Shown here one piece after another: positions 17,681-25,276 of a stretch of 38,298 nucleotides of DNA (position 1 is the stretch's first letter; each line of letters opens with the position of its first letter). The stretch covers positions 1-38,298 of the forward strand of contig CAMAQB010000029.1 of assembly GCA_945860285.1 (NCBI GenBank), read 5' to 3'. This DNA is from Akkermansia muciniphila. Lineage in GTDB: Bacteria > Verrucomicrobiota > Verrucomicrobiia > Verrucomicrobiales > Akkermansiaceae. The notes beneath the pieces are model-generated. The model was given only the letters and a program-made list of their open reading frames with translations, did no database searches and was not told where the DNA came from. A program made the position numbers and the translations under genes.

Positions 17681-18316
17681 TCAGGGGCTCAGTCGGGTGA
17701 TTTCCCATGTCGTGTCGATTTTTTCATATAAAAACCGATCATGGATTCTTGCCGGTCCACCTTGCCAAAATTCGATGCTTTCAGGTATCACGCGGTAACC
17801 GCCCCAGAATGATGGCAAGGGGATATCCCCATGTTTGAATTTTTCGCCGATTTCATGAAGTTTGAGCATCAACATTTTTCGCGAATTGATGACGGAACTT
17901 TGCTGCGAGACCCAGGCGCCCAGTTGTGATTCACGAGGTCGGGAAACAAAGTATTTGAGAGACTCTGCGGCGGAGATTTTTTCGGCACGACCCTGGATGA
18001 TCACCTGCCTTTCCAAGGTGATCCAGGGAAACAGCAGGCTGACATTCGGGTTGGCGCTCATGTGTTTGGCCTTGCGGCTTTCATAGTTGGTGAAAAAAAC
18101 GAAGCCGTTCGGGTCAAAATATTTCAGAAGGACCGTTCGCAGCAAGGGGCGCGAAAATTCATCCACGGTTGCCAGGGACATGGCATTCGGCTCGTGCAGG
18201 TTGAGCTCAAGAGCTTGTTGGAACCAATGGGTGAATTGAACGATGGGATCTTCGTGCAGATCCTTCCGGCGCATCCCTTTGGCGGAGTATTCTTTGCGAA
18301 ATTCGGATAAGTCCAT
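17681..18316 (-). CDS. pdxH: Pyridoxamine 5'-phosphate oxidase
   Basis: PdxH uses FMN and oxygen to turn pyridoxine or pyridoxamine phosphate into pyridoxal phosphate. The 211-residue product (ATG at 18316) shows the family opening EFRKEYSAKGMRRKDLHEDP, then QFTHWFQQAL, LRTVLLKYFDPNGFVFFTNY (FMN-binding), SRKAKHMSANP, FPWITLERQVIIQGRAEKIS, SRPRESQLGAWVSQQS and the closing FWQGGPARIHDRFLYE. A TTG at 18328 could extend the protein by four residues but adds nothing conserved. Several PLP enzymes occur in the window (dapL is two genes upstream), which use the product. Confidence 0.96.
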   Translation of the reverse strand: MDLSEFRKEYSAKGMRRKDLHEDPIVQFTHWFQQALELNLHEPNAMSLATVDEFSRPLLRTVLLKYFDPNGFVFFTNYESRKAKHMSANPNVSLLFPWITLERQVIIQGRAEKISAAESLKYFVSRPRESQLGAWVSQQSSVINSRKMLMLKLHEIGEKFKHGDIPLPSFWGGYRVIPESIEFWQGGPARIHDRFLYEKIDTTWEITRLSP

Positions 18317-18438
18317 GTGCGAAATCAAAATAGCATGGGTTAAGAGCCTGTCGATAGCTTCTTTGCCGCGCAGAGGTGGGCGACGAACTTCTCCGGTCTA
18401 TGGGGAAATGCTCCTGACAATCCGACTGCGGTCTCCCT

Positions 18439-20322
18439 TCAGGGCTCGATTGTCACGCGGTCGCCGATTTCGGTTAGGGCGAAGAGTTTTTGCGCGTTTC
18501 CGGCGGGAACTCGCAGGCACCCGTGTGAGGCTGGATAACCCGGAACCACGCCTTGGTGAAATCCGAAGGCACTGCAACTCAAGCGCTGGAAAAAAGGCAT
18601 GGAGGCATCGTTGTAAATGGTGGAGTGCCATTCGCGGTGTTTGTTGGTGATCACATAAACACCAGTCGGGGTGGCATAGTCCTTTTTTCCAGTGGAAATT
18701 TTCGTCGAGAAGAGCGTTTCTCCCACCGAATCAAAGACAGTTGCCGATTGTTTCGTCAATGAAACGATGATTTTGCGGTCTTCATTTTCCGGGTCCTTGT
18801 GAAGCAGCAGGCGCATCATTTTCACATCATTCTTGCGCGAGGCAAAATTGAGCGGCCATGTTTTGTTCACAGCCGTCCATGTTTCGGTTTTCGCGCCATG
18901 ATCGAGCAGTGCTTTTGTTGTTTCAAGGTCGCCGGAATCCGCTGCAAGCATAAGCGGGGTAAGGTTGCGATCATTGCGCAAGTACCACTTCATGCCCGCG
19001 CCATCGAAACAAGCCAGAAAGGAATCGGTCACCTTGGGTTCAATTTTTTTATTGGGATCGGCTTTTCGCTCCAGCAGGAGGCGCACGATTGGGGATTGCC
19101 TCTTGGCGATGGCACAAACAAGAGGTGTCTGATTGTCTCTACCGAGACTGTCAATCTCCGCGCCGCGCTCAAGCAGGTGTTCCACGAGCGCGGAGCTGCC
19201 GCTGCGAATGGCGCAATGGATGGGGGCATCGAAGTCCGCCGTCCCATCAGTCGGAGTGATCACGCCATGTTTTTCAAGGAGCCGGACTGCGGCGATATTG
19301 CCGTGTTCGCACGCAAGATGATAGCTTGTGCCGATCCCGGTGTGATGCCGGAGGAGAATCTCCGCAGAAACCAGGTCCTGCTTCTCGATCGAGATATCGA
19401 GCAACGAGCGACCCGTTTCATCGAGCTTTGTCGTCTTGATCCCTGCATCGAGGAGCATATCGAGTTGCTGTGAATGGCCGGAATAGAGCGAGTTCCTAAG
19501 TCGTTGCTCCCACCCCCCGGGACCTGCGTCAGCTCCAAGTTTGAGCAGCATTTGAAAGCGCTCCCGGTTTCCTGAACTCAGTGCGATGTCCACTGCGCTC
19601 TGGCCATTGATGGACTTCGCCTGCAGGTCCGCACCCTTTTGCAGGAGATTCGGGATCAATTCGTCCCAGCCGTTTTCCACAAACTGGATGATCAAAGGAT
19701 TGGTGGCAGCAGGGGATGGTCCTTGTTTTTCAGGCACTGCTCCCAATTCGAGCAAGCGCAACGACAATTCAATTTGTTTTTTACTGGCAGCGCAATTCAA
19801 GGCGCTCGTTCCATCGGAGCCTGAAGCTCGGGGATTCGCCCCTTTTTCCAACAATTCCCTGGCGATGACATAACGGCCATGATTGATGCACCAAACGAGC
19901 AATGGTTCATCATTCCCGAAAAGGGTGTCTGGATCGGCTCCCTGTTTCAAGAGTGCACTGGCTATCGAAATGTCGCCATTTCTTGCTGCGAGCGCGAGGG
20001 GACTCGCGAGGTTGGGCGACTTGCTATCCAGCTGGGCTCCCGCGCGGAGGAGCATCATGGTTGCGCGATGGTCGCTTTGTTCTACGGATACCATCAGCGG
20101 AGAACGCCCTTCATCATCACAATGATTCGGATGCACCCCGCATTGAAGCAGGTCGTGAAGAGCCGACTCGTCCCGGCGTTGCACAGCCAGCATGACTTGC
20201 CCGGCGTTGAGAGGTATGCCCGCTTTTTGCAGTTGGTGTTGGGCACGCGTTTTCTCATCGCTGCAGGAGCACAGCAGCGTCAGGGTGAACACTGACAAGC
20301 CACGGAATGTGCGACAAAACAC
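18439..20322 (-). CDS. Lipoprotein with ankyrin repeats and a C-terminal L,D-transpeptidase (YkuD) domain
   Basis: The 627-residue product starts from a GTG and has an export signal ending FTLTLLCSCSDEK, a plausible lipobox with Cys20. Residues ~40-520 consist of about a dozen ankyrin-type repeats (for example GRSPLMVSVEQSDHRATMML, TPLVCAIAKRQSPIVRLLLE, TPLMLAADSGDLETTKALLD). Residues ~525-627 are a YkuD domain: TPTGVYVITNKHR, and FHQGVVPGYPASHGCLRV with His589, His600, Cys602 and Arg604 in the catalytic pattern. YkuD enzymes make 3-3 peptidoglycan crosslinks or attach proteins to peptidoglycan. The ankyrin part probably binds protein partners in the periplasm. The combination is unusual. It lies alone between pdxH and dapL. 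Confidence 0.88.
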   Translation of the reverse strand: MFCRTFRGLSVFTLTLLCSCSDEKTRAQHQLQKAGIPLNAGQVMLAVQRRDESALHDLLQCGVHPNHCDDEGRSPLMVSVEQSDHRATMMLLRAGAQLDSKSPNLASPLALAARNGDISIASALLKQGADPDTLFGNDEPLLVWCINHGRYVIARELLEKGANPRASGSDGTSALNCAASKKQIELSLRLLELGAVPEKQGPSPAATNPLIIQFVENGWDELIPNLLQKGADLQAKSINGQSAVDIALSSGNRERFQMLLKLGADAGPGGWEQRLRNSLYSGHSQQLDMLLDAGIKTTKLDETGRSLLDISIEKQDLVSAEILLRHHTGIGTSYHLACEHGNIAAVRLLEKHGVITPTDGTADFDAPIHCAIRSGSSALVEHLLERGAEIDSLGRDNQTPLVCAIAKRQSPIVRLLLERKADPNKKIEPKVTDSFLACFDGAGMKWYLRNDRNLTPLMLAADSGDLETTKALLDHGAKTETWTAVNKTWPLNFASRKNDVKMMRLLLHKDPENEDRKIIVSLTKQSATVFDSVGETLFSTKISTGKKDYATPTGVYVITNKHREWHSTIYNDASMPFFQRLSCSAFGFHQGVVPGYPASHGCLRVPAGNAQKLFALTEIGDRVTIEP

Positions 20323-20405: not shown

Positions 20406-21647
20406 TCAGTCATGTGGAGGGAACATCGCTGTTATGCGCCGGCACACCTCTTCGACGTTGCTGCGCGAATTGAACGCGGAAATGCGGAACCAGCCTTCGC
20501 CACCCGCACCGAACCCTGAGCCCGGCGTGATCACGACGAGGGCTTGCTGCAACATCTTGTCAAACATTTCCCATGAGCTGGTTCCTGGGGGGCAGCCAAC
20601 CCACACATACGGGGCGTTTTCGCCGCCGTAAACCGGCAGTCCCACTCCCAGGCAAGCCTCGCGCAGCAAAGCCGCATTTCCCATGTAATGCGTGATCAAT
20701 TCCGCCACCTGTTGTTTCCCTTCGCTGGTGAAAAGTGCCGCCGCGGCTTTCTGAACTGGATAACTCGCCCCGTTGAATTTGGTGCTGTGGCGCCGCGACC
20801 AGAGTTGGTGAAGCGGGATTTTTTCCCCTTCGCTAGTGCAGCCAACCAGCGCTTTGGGGATGACCGTATAGGCACAGCGGACACCGGTGAATCCACCGTG
20901 TTTTGAAAAGGAACGGAATTCCATCGCGCATCGATGTGCGCCGGGAATTTCAAAAATGGATCGCGGCAGGTTTTCATCCTGAATGAACGCTTCGTAAGCG
21001 GAATCGAAAAGGATGATTGAATCGTTAGCCAGAGCGTAATTGACCCATGCGGTCAATTGTTCACGAGAAGCAACTGCTCCGGTGGGGTTGTTGGGGAAGC
21101 ACAGGTAGATGATATCCACTTTTTCCACGGGAGGGACGGCTACAAAACCATTTGATGCATTGCAAGGAAGATAGGTGAGCCCGGAGTAGGCACCTGACTC
21201 GTCGGCTTCGCCGGTGTTTCCCGCCATGACATTCGTGTCCACATAGACGGGATAAACAGGGTCGGTGATGGCGATTCGATTCCCTTTTCCAAATATGTCG
21301 AGGATGTTTCCGGTGTCGCACTTTGAGCCGTCGGAAATGAAAATTTCGTCGGCCGCGATCCCCAGTCCTGCGTATTGATTGTCCGCAATGGCCTCGCGGA
21401 GGAAAGCGTATCCTTGTTCCGGCCCATAGCCCTTGAAGGTGCTCCGATCGGCCAGTTCGTCCACTCCTTCATGCATCGCTTTGATGGCTGCGGCGGGAAG
21501 TGCTTCCGTGACATCGCCAATGCCGCAACGGATCAACCTGGCTGCTTGCCCGGGGTTCTGTTGTTGGAAACTGGAGACGCGGCGGGCGATTTCAGGAAAA
21601 AGATATCCGGCCTTGAGTTTGAGAAAGTTTTCGTTGATGTATGCCAT
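20406..21647 (-). CDS. dapL: LL-diaminopimelate aminotransferase
   Basis: DapL makes LL-diaminopimelate from tetrahydrodipicolinate in one PLP-dependent step, a lysine and peptidoglycan precursor route known from plants, chlamydiae and other PVC bacteria. The 413-residue product shows [20 protein letters not shown] at the N-terminus, [69 protein letters not shown] and the PLP-lysine segment [20 protein letters not shown] with Lys249. These are family-specific rather than general aminotransferase features. It has its own space on both sides: a terminator of the upstream RRM gene lies 110-140 bases before its start. Confidence 0.95.
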
Positions 21648-22940: not shown

Positions 22941-23756
22941 TCAGACCCTGTTGCTTGGCTCCAGGGCAAATGGCGATGCTCCCAGCGGTGATATCACCCC
23001 TGACGACAGTTTTTTTCCCAGAGTTACCTTGCCTTTCGCGATGATCGCGCCGATCAGTTCTCCTTCGATGAGGGCGCTGTGGGTTTCGATGTCATGATGG
23101 CTTTCAACCCTGCTTGCGAGGGGGATGTGCAGTTGTTGACAGGAAATCCGGCCCAGAATGGTCGTGGAGCGGTTGATGGAAATTTTTCCCGAACATTGTG
23201 CTGAGCAGCGGAAAGTGCCATCAATCGTGAGATGATGGCACTGCAACAACACTCCCTGGACTGAGCCCTTTTTCAGAATATGAACATTGCCACGGGTTTG
23301 GATGCGACGGTGCCAGTTTTCATTGATCTCGTAATCTCTAAGGCTAACGTAAATGCCGCAGGACGGGCAATGGGAAGCCTGTGCCTGTGAGGATGCCGTG
23401 TGTTCCTTGTTGCAATCCGTGCACATCACAGTTCTGTGCTCGGGGGAGGAGGACAGGTAGCGGTGTATGATTGATCCTGATTGGACCAAGTGACTGTCTT
23501 TGAAGTGAAACGGAAAAAGCCGCGAAGCTGGCTGGATTGCAGCGGACTCTGGGGTTGTCTTGCAGGAGGGCGGGACTTGAGGTTTCGGAGAGAAGCGGAC
23601 GCGTGGACTGCGGCTCACCGCCAGCCCATTATGGATTTGTATGCCGGAATTGCAGGCACGGCATATCGTGGACAAAGCCATCCGGGATTCGAACTGCCGA
23701 TTTCCGCAGTCGGGGCAAACAATCTGCAATCGGGCGGTCGGGGAATCATTGTTCAC
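22941..23756 (-). CDS. Zinc-ribbon protein with a bactofilin-type C-terminal domain
   Basis: The 271-residue product (GTG start) has two four-cysteine metal-binding pairs: CPDC (Cys14, Cys17) with CRAC (Cys32, Cys35), and CTDC (Cys112, Cys115) with CPSC (Cys130, Cys133). From about residue 155 onward it contains short repeating beta-strand turns (RGNVHILKKGSVQGVLLQ, LTIDGTFRCSAQCSGKISIN, EGELIGAIIAKGKVTLGKKL), as in bactofilins, which polymerise into cytoskeletal filaments. It lies 91 bases downstream of a canonical bactofilin gene on the same strand. The zinc ribbons could mediate attachment to a partner; nucleic acid binding is also possible. The bactofilin assignment is moderately sure from the repeat pattern. 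Confidence 0.72.
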   Translation of the reverse strand: MNNDSPTARLQIVCPDCGNRQFESRMALSTICRACNSGIQIHNGLAVSRSPRVRFSPKPQVPPSCKTTPESAAIQPASRLFPFHFKDSHLVQSGSIIHRYLSSSPEHRTVMCTDCNKEHTASSQAQASHCPSCGIYVSLRDYEINENWHRRIQTRGNVHILKKGSVQGVLLQCHHLTIDGTFRCSAQCSGKISINRSTTILGRISCQQLHIPLASRVESHHDIETHSALIEGELIGAIIAKGKVTLGKKLSSGVISPLGASPFALEPSNRV

Positions 23757-23847: not shown

Positions 23848-24390
23848 TTAAGGCTTTTTTGTCTGCTCCGACTTCGCGGCGGCGTTTGCACCGTCAGAGT
23901 TTGTCGATGGATTTGCAGTCGGAGTGCCGATGGTGGATTTTCCTACAAAAATGGCTCCGGGCTCCATGGTGAGAATCTTTGCCTTGATGTCGCCCACAAC
24001 TTCCGCACCCGCCTTGAGATCGACGCGGTCCGTGGCGGTGATATTGCCGTGCACTTTGCCGTGAACCGTTACGGTAGCGGTGCGAATTTCCGCTTTGATG
24101 CGCGCATTTTCGCCGATTGTCAGGTTTCCATCGGACTGGATTTCCCCTTCGATTCGACCATCAACAATCAGGTCGTTGGTGAATTTGAGAGTTCCCTTCA
24201 CTTCCACGTCGGTGGAAAGGACGTTCCGCGAAGCTGCACTGGGCGGACGGGCCGGGGCAGTTAGTGAGGGAGAGGGGGCGGCAGCAGAGGCCGCAGGCTG
24301 CTGACCGCTGTTTGCAGTTGGCGCGGTCGTTTGTGTGGAGGGTGAAGGGCTGGTATCTCCAGGTTTCTGACCAATTACTTTTTGGAACAT
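23848..24390 (-). CDS. Bactofilin (polymer-forming cytoskeletal protein)
   Basis: Bactofilins form stable filaments from a right-handed beta-helix and help place cell-wall enzymes, stalks or chromosome machinery. The 180-residue product has a proline/serine/alanine-rich flexible N-terminus to about residue 60, then the core with STDVEVKGTLKFTNDLIVDG, RIEGEIQSDGNLTIGENARI, TVTVHGKVHGNITATDRVDL and AEVVGDIKAKILTMEPGAIF, and a flexible C-terminus. The start at 24390 (MFQKVIGQK) is chosen because upstream codons lie in the intergenic spacer to the preceding gene. It sits 34 bases after the TPR membrane protein gene and 91 before the zinc-ribbon bactofilin, suggesting an operon. Confidence 0.92.
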   Translation of the reverse strand: MFQKVIGQKPGDTSPSPSTQTTAPTANSGQQPAASAAAPSPSLTAPARPPSAASRNVLSTDVEVKGTLKFTNDLIVDGRIEGEIQSDGNLTIGENARIKAEIRTATVTVHGKVHGNITATDRVDLKAGAEVVGDIKAKILTMEPGAIFVGKSTIGTPTANPSTNSDGANAAAKSEQTKKP

Positions 24391-24424
24391 GATTTTTTTT
24401 GCAGTTGTGATTGAAATAAATACG

Positions 24425-25276
24425 TTACTTGGAATCTGAAGGGGCGGGCGTGTCAGGCGGGGGGGGCGCATCCTCGGGAAGCGTGTCTTTGGGTGTGCCA
24501 TCCGGGACGGCATCAAGCGCCCCGCCGAGCTGTTTTAGCAAGGGGTTATCGTTCGATGCATTGGTTGGATCCTCGACAGGATCGGGCCGACTGATCGAAG
24601 ACGGCGGCGCCTGAGGTGTCGGAGGCGGCTCAATTTCGGTCGGCGCAAGGAAATTGATGAAATTCTGCCTCTCGGTCGCGATCTGGGCGAACTTGCTGTC
24701 ATTGAAATCCTTGCCGACTTTTTTGTAGGATTCCGCAGCCTTTTCCTTATTTCCACCTTTCCTGGCGATATCGCCCAGTGCGATCAGCGCAGCGGGAGCC
24801 AGAAAACGAGAGTCGGGATTGTCAATCACAGCCTGGAATGCGATCTCGGCATCACCTGTTTTGCCCTGTGTGAGCAGACGGTAGGCCAGTGTGCTTTGTG
24901 CGAGCAGATGCGCCGGATGGTCCGGGTATTTTTGAATGATCTCTCTCAGTGTTCCGATTGCCTCGTCCTGCTGGGTATTGCTCCATTGTTTTTCGGCGAT
25001 GGCAAGTGCTGCGGATGCGGCCGAAGGAGTGCCTGTGAAATCCGCTTTAATCTTCTCCAGATCCGCCAGATCCTTGGCTGCTGAGAGAGCGGCGCCCGCG
25101 TCCGCCCGATGGTCGGCCTGGATTGTCCGGTAGATCATGTATCCCCCTATGGAAAGCGCCACGACAACGGCAGCCACCGCGAGACTTTTTTGATTGCGAT
25201 CCAAAAAAATCTCGAAAGCGCTGGGGCCTTGAATGATTTCACCGAGTGGTACAGGATTTGTTGATGGATCTGACAT
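24425..25276 (-). CDS. Membrane-anchored TPR protein, YfgM-like
   Basis: The 283-residue product has a short cytoplasmic N-terminus, one membrane helix (about residues 31-50, SLAVAAVVVALSIGGYMIY) and a periplasmic TPR-like region with helices such as AIAEKQWSNTQQDEAIGTLR and AAESYKKVGKDFNDSKFAQI. The topology resembles YfgM-type proteins linked to the SecY translocon. The C-terminus, after about residue 215, is a proline-rich, acidic, disordered tail. It is the first gene of the minus-strand cluster leading to the two bactofilins, so a role in placing envelope machinery is a reasonable guess. Divergent lpxB begins 104 bases away. Confidence 0.75.
   Translation of the reverse strand: MSDPSTNPVPLGEIIQGPSAFEIFLDRNQKSLAVAAVVVALSIGGYMIYRTIQADHRADAGAALSAAKDLADLEKIKADFTGTPSAASAALAIAEKQWSNTQQDEAIGTLREIIQKYPDHPAHLLAQSTLAYRLLTQGKTGDAEIAFQAVIDNPDSRFLAPAALIALGDIARKGGNKEKAAESYKKVGKDFNDSKFAQIATERQNFINFLAPTEIEPPPTPQAPPSSISRPDPVEDPTNASNDNPLLKQLGGALDAVPDGTPKDTLPEDAPPPPDTPAPSDSK

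What the first reader, a model, noticed from the sequence alone, without database searches (positions are those of the whole stretch)
18439..20322. Ankyrin-repeat lipoprotein with an L,D-transpeptidase domain
A lipobox, about a dozen ankyrin repeats and a YkuD domain with all catalytic residues (His589, His600, Cys602, Arg604) lie in one chain. Ankyrin arrays usually scaffold protein binding, and a membrane-tethered crosslinking enzyme carrying one suggests that it is steered to or regulated by partner proteins at the cell wall. I do not know a described example of this combination.
Basis: partly seen in the sequence, partly recalled or inferred. Interest (0 to 1): 0.62.

Follow-up and report, generated by a model that had tools for sequence, protein, structure and literature searches.

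The report
Ankyrin-armed lipoprotein L,D-transpeptidase
This gene encodes a predicted cell-wall cross-linking enzyme carried at the end of a long chain of ankyrin repeats and tethered to a membrane; the layout is real, recurs across the Verrucomicrobiota, often sits beside the gene that makes the wall's cross-linking amino acid, and does not appear to have been described.

Summary
His589, His600, Cys602 and Arg604 are as stated. A full-length AlphaFold model is confident (mean pLDDT 92). The fusion is an old, mainly vertical family of Verrucomicrobiota; in the 80 best hits no fusion came from another phylum. I found no paper describing it.

New here: (1) the gene directly follows dapL (LL-diaminopimelate aminotransferase) in 14 other distinct loci, and four same-genus genomes that lack it have dapL joined to pdxH at that site; (2) conservation is concentrated in the last ankyrin repeats, an insert and the YkuD domain, while the distal array varies in length. 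The last repeats look like part of the enzyme, the outer array like a variable arm. A partner-binding groove along the whole array is not supported. Cross-linking, location and partners are untested. New variant of a known kind.

The parts
18439..20322 (-). ank-LDT gene, 627 aa, GTG start
20263..20322 (-). Signal sequence with lipobox LCSC; Cys20 at 20263-20265, Ser at +2
   Evidence: sequence; Cys20 among the most conserved non-YkuD positions in 25 family sequences
18778..20217 (-). Ankyrin array, 14 helix pairs, residues 36-515
   Evidence: AlphaFold2 helices, Pfam, Foldseek top hits are ankyrin solenoids
18976..19065 (-). Conserved insert between ankyrin repeats 12 and 13 (residues 420-449; F435 in 88% of 85 loci)
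18442..18777 (-). YkuD L,D-transpeptidase domain, residues 516-627
   Evidence: Pfam PF03734; domain model pLDDT 91, best PDB match 5bmq TM 0.90, then LdtMt2, LdtFm and B. subtilis YkuD
18511..18558 (-). Catalytic motif: H589 (18556-18558), S599-H600-G601-C602 (Cys 18517-18519), R604
   Evidence: 85/85 loci (partly biased by the search pattern); Cys, H589, R604 21/21 in an unbiased set
20406..21647 (-). dapL, LL-diaminopimelate aminotransferase, 83 bp upstream on the same strand; conserved neighbour
   Evidence: TIGR03542, 566 bits; directly upstream in 14 other distinct loci
17681..18328 (-). pdxH, pyridoxamine 5'-phosphate oxidase, directly downstream; dapL and pdxH abut in four same-genus genomes that lack ank-LDT
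   Evidence: Pfam PNPOx_N

Best explanation
The protein is exported and lipid-anchored (inferred from the lipobox) and places a catalytically complete YkuD-type L,D-transpeptidase in the envelope on a long ankyrin arm. The enzyme should attack the DAP3-D-Ala4 bond of peptidoglycan stems through Cys602/His589 and pass the DAP carboxyl to an acceptor amine: another stem (3-3 cross-link) or an envelope protein. The last ankyrin repeats (about AR11-AR14) with the 420-449 insert form a fixed unit with the catalytic domain and probably shape or cover its substrate groove. The more distal repeats are a variable-length arm that sets reach from the membrane and may bind lineage-specific partners. In the Akkermansiaceae-type clade the gene was probably transcribed with dapL, the enzyme that supplies the DAP being cross-linked. 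Shown: architecture, catalytic residues, predicted fold, conservation pattern, gene linkage. Inferred: export, lipidation, activity, acceptor, the role of the repeats, co-transcription.
For: Catalytic residues retained across relatives. Domain model closest to true transpeptidases 5bmq, LdtMt2, LdtFm and B. subtilis YkuD by fold and by profile. Lipobox or other N-terminal hydrophobic segment in relatives. Minimal members (283-316 aa, L124, L139) keep only the last repeats plus YkuD, matching from residue 401. Concave ankyrin conservation rises only in the last repeats (AR11-14: 0.44-0.56, against 0.28-0.43 in AR1-10) and the insert is conserved. dapL lies directly upstream on the same strand in 14 other distinct loci, gaps 6-370 bp, and is the commonest shared neighbour family of 74 loci clustered. 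Four same-genus genomes without ank-LDT have dapL-pdxH joined. No minus-strand terminator-like site between dapL and the gene.
Against: No biochemical data. No signal-peptide predictor was run. The dapL linkage is confined to one clade and absent from its Luteolibacter-like subclade. The gene is absent from six of ten genomes of the window's genus, so it is dispensable. The genome has nine other YkuD genes, so any activity may be redundant.
Confidence: 0.6

Rival explanations
1. The ankyrin array is a docking scaffold: a specific envelope protein binds it and localises or switches the transpeptidase.
For: Ankyrin arrays usually bind proteins; a periplasmic ankyrin protein, Bd3460, binds and inhibits peptidoglycan endopeptidases in Bdellovibrio (PMC4686830).
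Against: No conserved ligand face along the array and widely varying repeat number; no conserved candidate partner gene beside it.
Confidence: 0.25
2. The ankyrin repeats act in cis as an inhibitory cover over the active site, opened by force or by a ligand, as a built-in version of the Bd3460 inhibitor.
For: Conserved concave face and insert only next to the catalytic domain; Bd3460 covers an active-site cleft with its repeats.
Against: No geometry could be measured; B. subtilis YkuD, a similarly compact domain in the profile match, is not known to me to have such a cover.
Confidence: 0.2
3. It is a protein-peptidoglycan ligase that fixes outer-membrane proteins to DAP, rather than a 3-3 cross-linker.
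For: Anchoring of membrane proteins to peptidoglycan is the commonest specialised role of YkuD enzymes (PMC12729407); the enzyme itself looks membrane-anchored.
Against: Nothing here separates the two acceptors; the closest structures are mostly cross-linking enzymes.
Confidence: 0.3
4. It is a secreted antibacterial toxin with a YkuD tip, like polymorphic toxins or injected effectors.
For: Toxins with ankyrin repeats and with L,D-peptidase domains are known separately (PMC3482391; PMC8213781).
Against: The tip is the most conserved part rather than a variable one; lipobox; dapL/pdxH context with no immunity-like neighbour; the tree broadly follows taxonomy.
Confidence: 0.04

Closest known systems
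YkuD-type L,D-transpeptidases (LdtMt2, LdtFm, B. subtilis YkuD, 5bmq)
   Same: Catalytic fold (TM 0.90 to 5bmq), Cys-His-Arg motif; LdtMt2 is also a lipoprotein (PMC12729407)
   Different: LdtMt2 has Ig-like accessory domains; no ankyrin array is described for any of these
PRK06132/PRK12472 YkuD proteins of Hyphomicrobium and Bradyrhizobium
   Same: Among the nearest YkuD domains outside the fusion (45-51% identity)
   Different: No ankyrin; the YkuD domain lies near the N-terminus with a C-terminal extension
Bd3460 ankyrin inhibitor of Bdellovibrio endopeptidases
   Same: Exported ankyrin protein acting on a peptidoglycan enzyme (PMC4686830)
   Different: Separate protein, six repeats, targets DD-endopeptidases; not an enzyme
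Giant ankyrin-YkuD proteins of an Akkermansia-like genus (L154, L155, L157)
   Same: Same domain order, 1051-1320 aa ORFs
   Different: YkuD domain falls in another clade on the tree; a single origin is not formally rejected (AU p = 0.066)

Membership tests
YkuD L,D-transpeptidase (PF03734) | Domain match over the curated cut-off | tested here: met
   63.2 bits against a cut-off of 23.4
YkuD L,D-transpeptidase (PF03734) | Catalytic His and SHGC-x-R motif | tested here: met
   Window sequence; 85/85 core regions; 21/21 for Cys, H589 and R604 in the unbiased set, His600 at least 90%
YkuD L,D-transpeptidase (PF03734) | YkuD fold | tested here: met
   Predicted model: 5bmq TM 0.90, LdtMt2 about 0.80-0.87
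YkuD L,D-transpeptidase (PF03734) | Forms 3-3 cross-links or attaches proteins to DAP | not testable with these tools
   Needs muropeptide analysis
Ankyrin repeat protein | Repeated helix pairs forming a solenoid | tested here: met
   14 pairs, pLDDT mostly above 90; Foldseek to ankyrins and DARPins
Bacterial lipoprotein | n-region, hydrophobic core and lipobox with an invariant Cys | tested here: met
   By inspection: MFCRTFRGLSVFTLTLLCSC; Cys20 highly conserved in family relatives. The -2 Cys is unusual and no predictor was run
Bacterial lipoprotein | Which membrane it sits in | tested here: inconclusive
   +2 residue is Ser here but Asp, Arg, Gly or Val in relatives; sorting rules in this phylum are not known to me
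Polymorphic toxin / injected effector | Variable toxin tip and a neighbouring immunity gene | tested here: not met
   Tip is the most conserved region; neighbours are dapL and pdxH

The most novel reading that the evidence does not exclude
The last ankyrin repeats are an integral part of the active site of a new L,D-transpeptidase subclass, and the array is a length-tuned arm that sets where in the envelope DAP cross-links or protein anchors are made, co-expressed with DAP supply.
Probability: 0.3. Interest if true: 0.7.

Novelty: new variant of a known kind. Interest (0 to 1): 0.5.

Why it matters
L,D-transpeptidases remodel cell walls and attach proteins to them, but neither the 2025 review nor the papers found here describe this architecture, and the review does not mention Verrucomicrobiota. 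A widespread ankyrin-armed version there, linked to DAP synthesis, gives a concrete gene for testing how these bacteria cross-link or tether their envelope, and offers a natural case of a repeat arm built into a wall enzyme.

Tried and rejected
Single-sequence scan of genome contigs found nothing; the alignment query worked. Fold search with the full model returned only ankyrins in the 50 rows shown, so the YkuD domain was modelled alone. Frameshift or two-gene artefact: rejected, single ORFs in relatives. Toxin reading: rejected on conservation and context. Shared partner groove along the whole array: not supported. Single origin of all ankyrin-YkuD fusions: the tree wants two, but the AU test does not reject one, so left open. 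Alphaproteobacterial genomes could not be surveyed by handle. Model coordinates were not exposed, so domain contacts were not measured.

Full report
Observation. The ORF at 18439-20322 on the minus strand is open for 627 codons from a GTG; no other in-frame start precedes it after the upstream stop. Pfam finds ankyrin repeats (1e-52) and YkuD (5e-17, residues 516-625). Residues 9-20 form a hydrophobic core ending in LCSC with Ser at +2. AlphaFold2 on 36 sequences gives mean pLDDT 92.1 and 14 ankyrin helix pairs. PDB comparison by sequence and fold gives ankyrins for the array. For the YkuD domain modelled alone (pLDDT 91) it gives L,D-transpeptidases: 5bmq TM 0.90, LdtMt2, LdtFm, B. subtilis YkuD.

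Relatives. In 57 relative genomes, fusions matching on both sides of the ankyrin/YkuD junction occur in most genera of the order. The second genome-contig scan returned 67 Verrucomicrobiota loci, Verrucomicrobiales and Chthoniobacterales, ranked above all others; the next 13 were YkuD proteins of Alphaproteobacteria that match only over the YkuD domain. Only the best 80 of 542 relatives were returned, so fusions in other phyla are not excluded. Across the 21 sequences of A1, chosen without a motif scan of a collection, Cys602, H589 and R604 are invariant and His600 is at least 90%. In 85 core regions all are invariant, but there the scan pattern itself partly selected for ASHGC. The core tree broadly follows taxonomy.

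Anatomy of conservation. Total lengths run from 283 aa (L124) to 866 aa (stop-to-stop ORF of L038), all with the YkuD domain last. The shortest members align from residue 401, keeping the final repeats. In 25 close relatives the framework and the concave face are most conserved in AR11-AR14, the insert 420-449 scores 0.49 and the YkuD domain 0.63; concave faces of AR1-AR10 score 0.28-0.43. Over the whole array concave does not exceed convex (p = 0.73). The last repeats thus behave as part of the enzyme and the rest as a variable arm. This is an inference from conservation; no contacts were measured.

Genome context. dapL lies directly upstream on the same strand in the window (83 bp) and in 14 other distinct loci (gaps 6-370 bp, measured to the start of the open frame); in three more it lies within 3 kb, divergent. 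It is identified as LL-diaminopimelate aminotransferase by TIGR03542 at 566 bits. Neighbour clustering of 74 loci finds dapL as the commonest shared neighbour; Chthoniobacterales have their own conserved neighbours. On the tree the linkage needs two changes and is absent from the Luteolibacter-like subclade and from L035. In G001, G002, G004 and G007, which lack ank-LDT, dapL is followed at once by pdxH, the gene that flanks ank-LDT in the window; G003, which keeps ank-LDT elsewhere, has a transposase-like ORF after dapL (identified by eye). With linkage across the family, loss from an ancestral dapL-ank-LDT pair is the simplest reading. DapL makes the residue that L,D-transpeptidases use as acyl donor and needs PLP, the product of PdxH (established knowledge), so the cluster is coherent.

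Second lineage. Three Akkermansia-like genomes carry 1051-1320 aa ankyrin-YkuD ORFs whose YkuD domains group with small YkuD proteins of the same genus group rather than with this family. Tying all fusions into one clade costs 21.8 log units but is not rejected (AU p 0.066). If real, the same architecture arose twice in one phylum.

Mechanism. Shown: architecture, motif, predicted fold, conservation, linkage. Inferred: export and lipidation, chemistry, a role of the last repeats at the substrate groove, arm function, co-transcription. Acceptor (stem peptide or protein) and membrane (inner or outer) are open; the +2 residue varies among relatives. The genome has nine other YkuD genes, so this is a specialised and dispensable paralogue.

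Comparison with the literature. Full-text searches for ankyrin with YkuD or D-transpeptidase gave no description; the 2025 review of these enzymes has no mention of ankyrin or Verrucomicrobiota. Subscription papers and domain-architecture databases were not searchable. The nearest functional precedent is Bd3460, an exported ankyrin protein that blocks peptidoglycan endopeptidases (PMC4686830).

Noticed in passing
L154, L155, L157 (Akkermansia-like genomes G011, G159, G123): Giant ankyrin-YkuD ORFs of 1051-1320 aa, possibly an independent fusion.
   Followed up: partly
L179, L181, L182, L183: Same-genus genomes lacking ank-LDT have dapL directly followed by pdxH, a natural empty site.
   Followed up: yes
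L119, L120, L125-L140 (Chthoniobacterales): A different conserved neighbourhood beside ank-LDT: a divergent 376 aa gene and a BadF-type kinase-like gene (named by eye).
   Followed up: no
22941-23756 and 23848-24516: Two adjacent bactofilin genes, the first with a weak zinc-ribbon-like match before the bactofilin domain.
   Followed up: no
L188:4142-4447: Transposase-like ORF after dapL in G003, where ank-LDT lies on another contig (identified by eye).
   Followed up: partly
L163:1-6001: Two small YkuD genes side by side in an Akkermansia-like genome.
   Followed up: no
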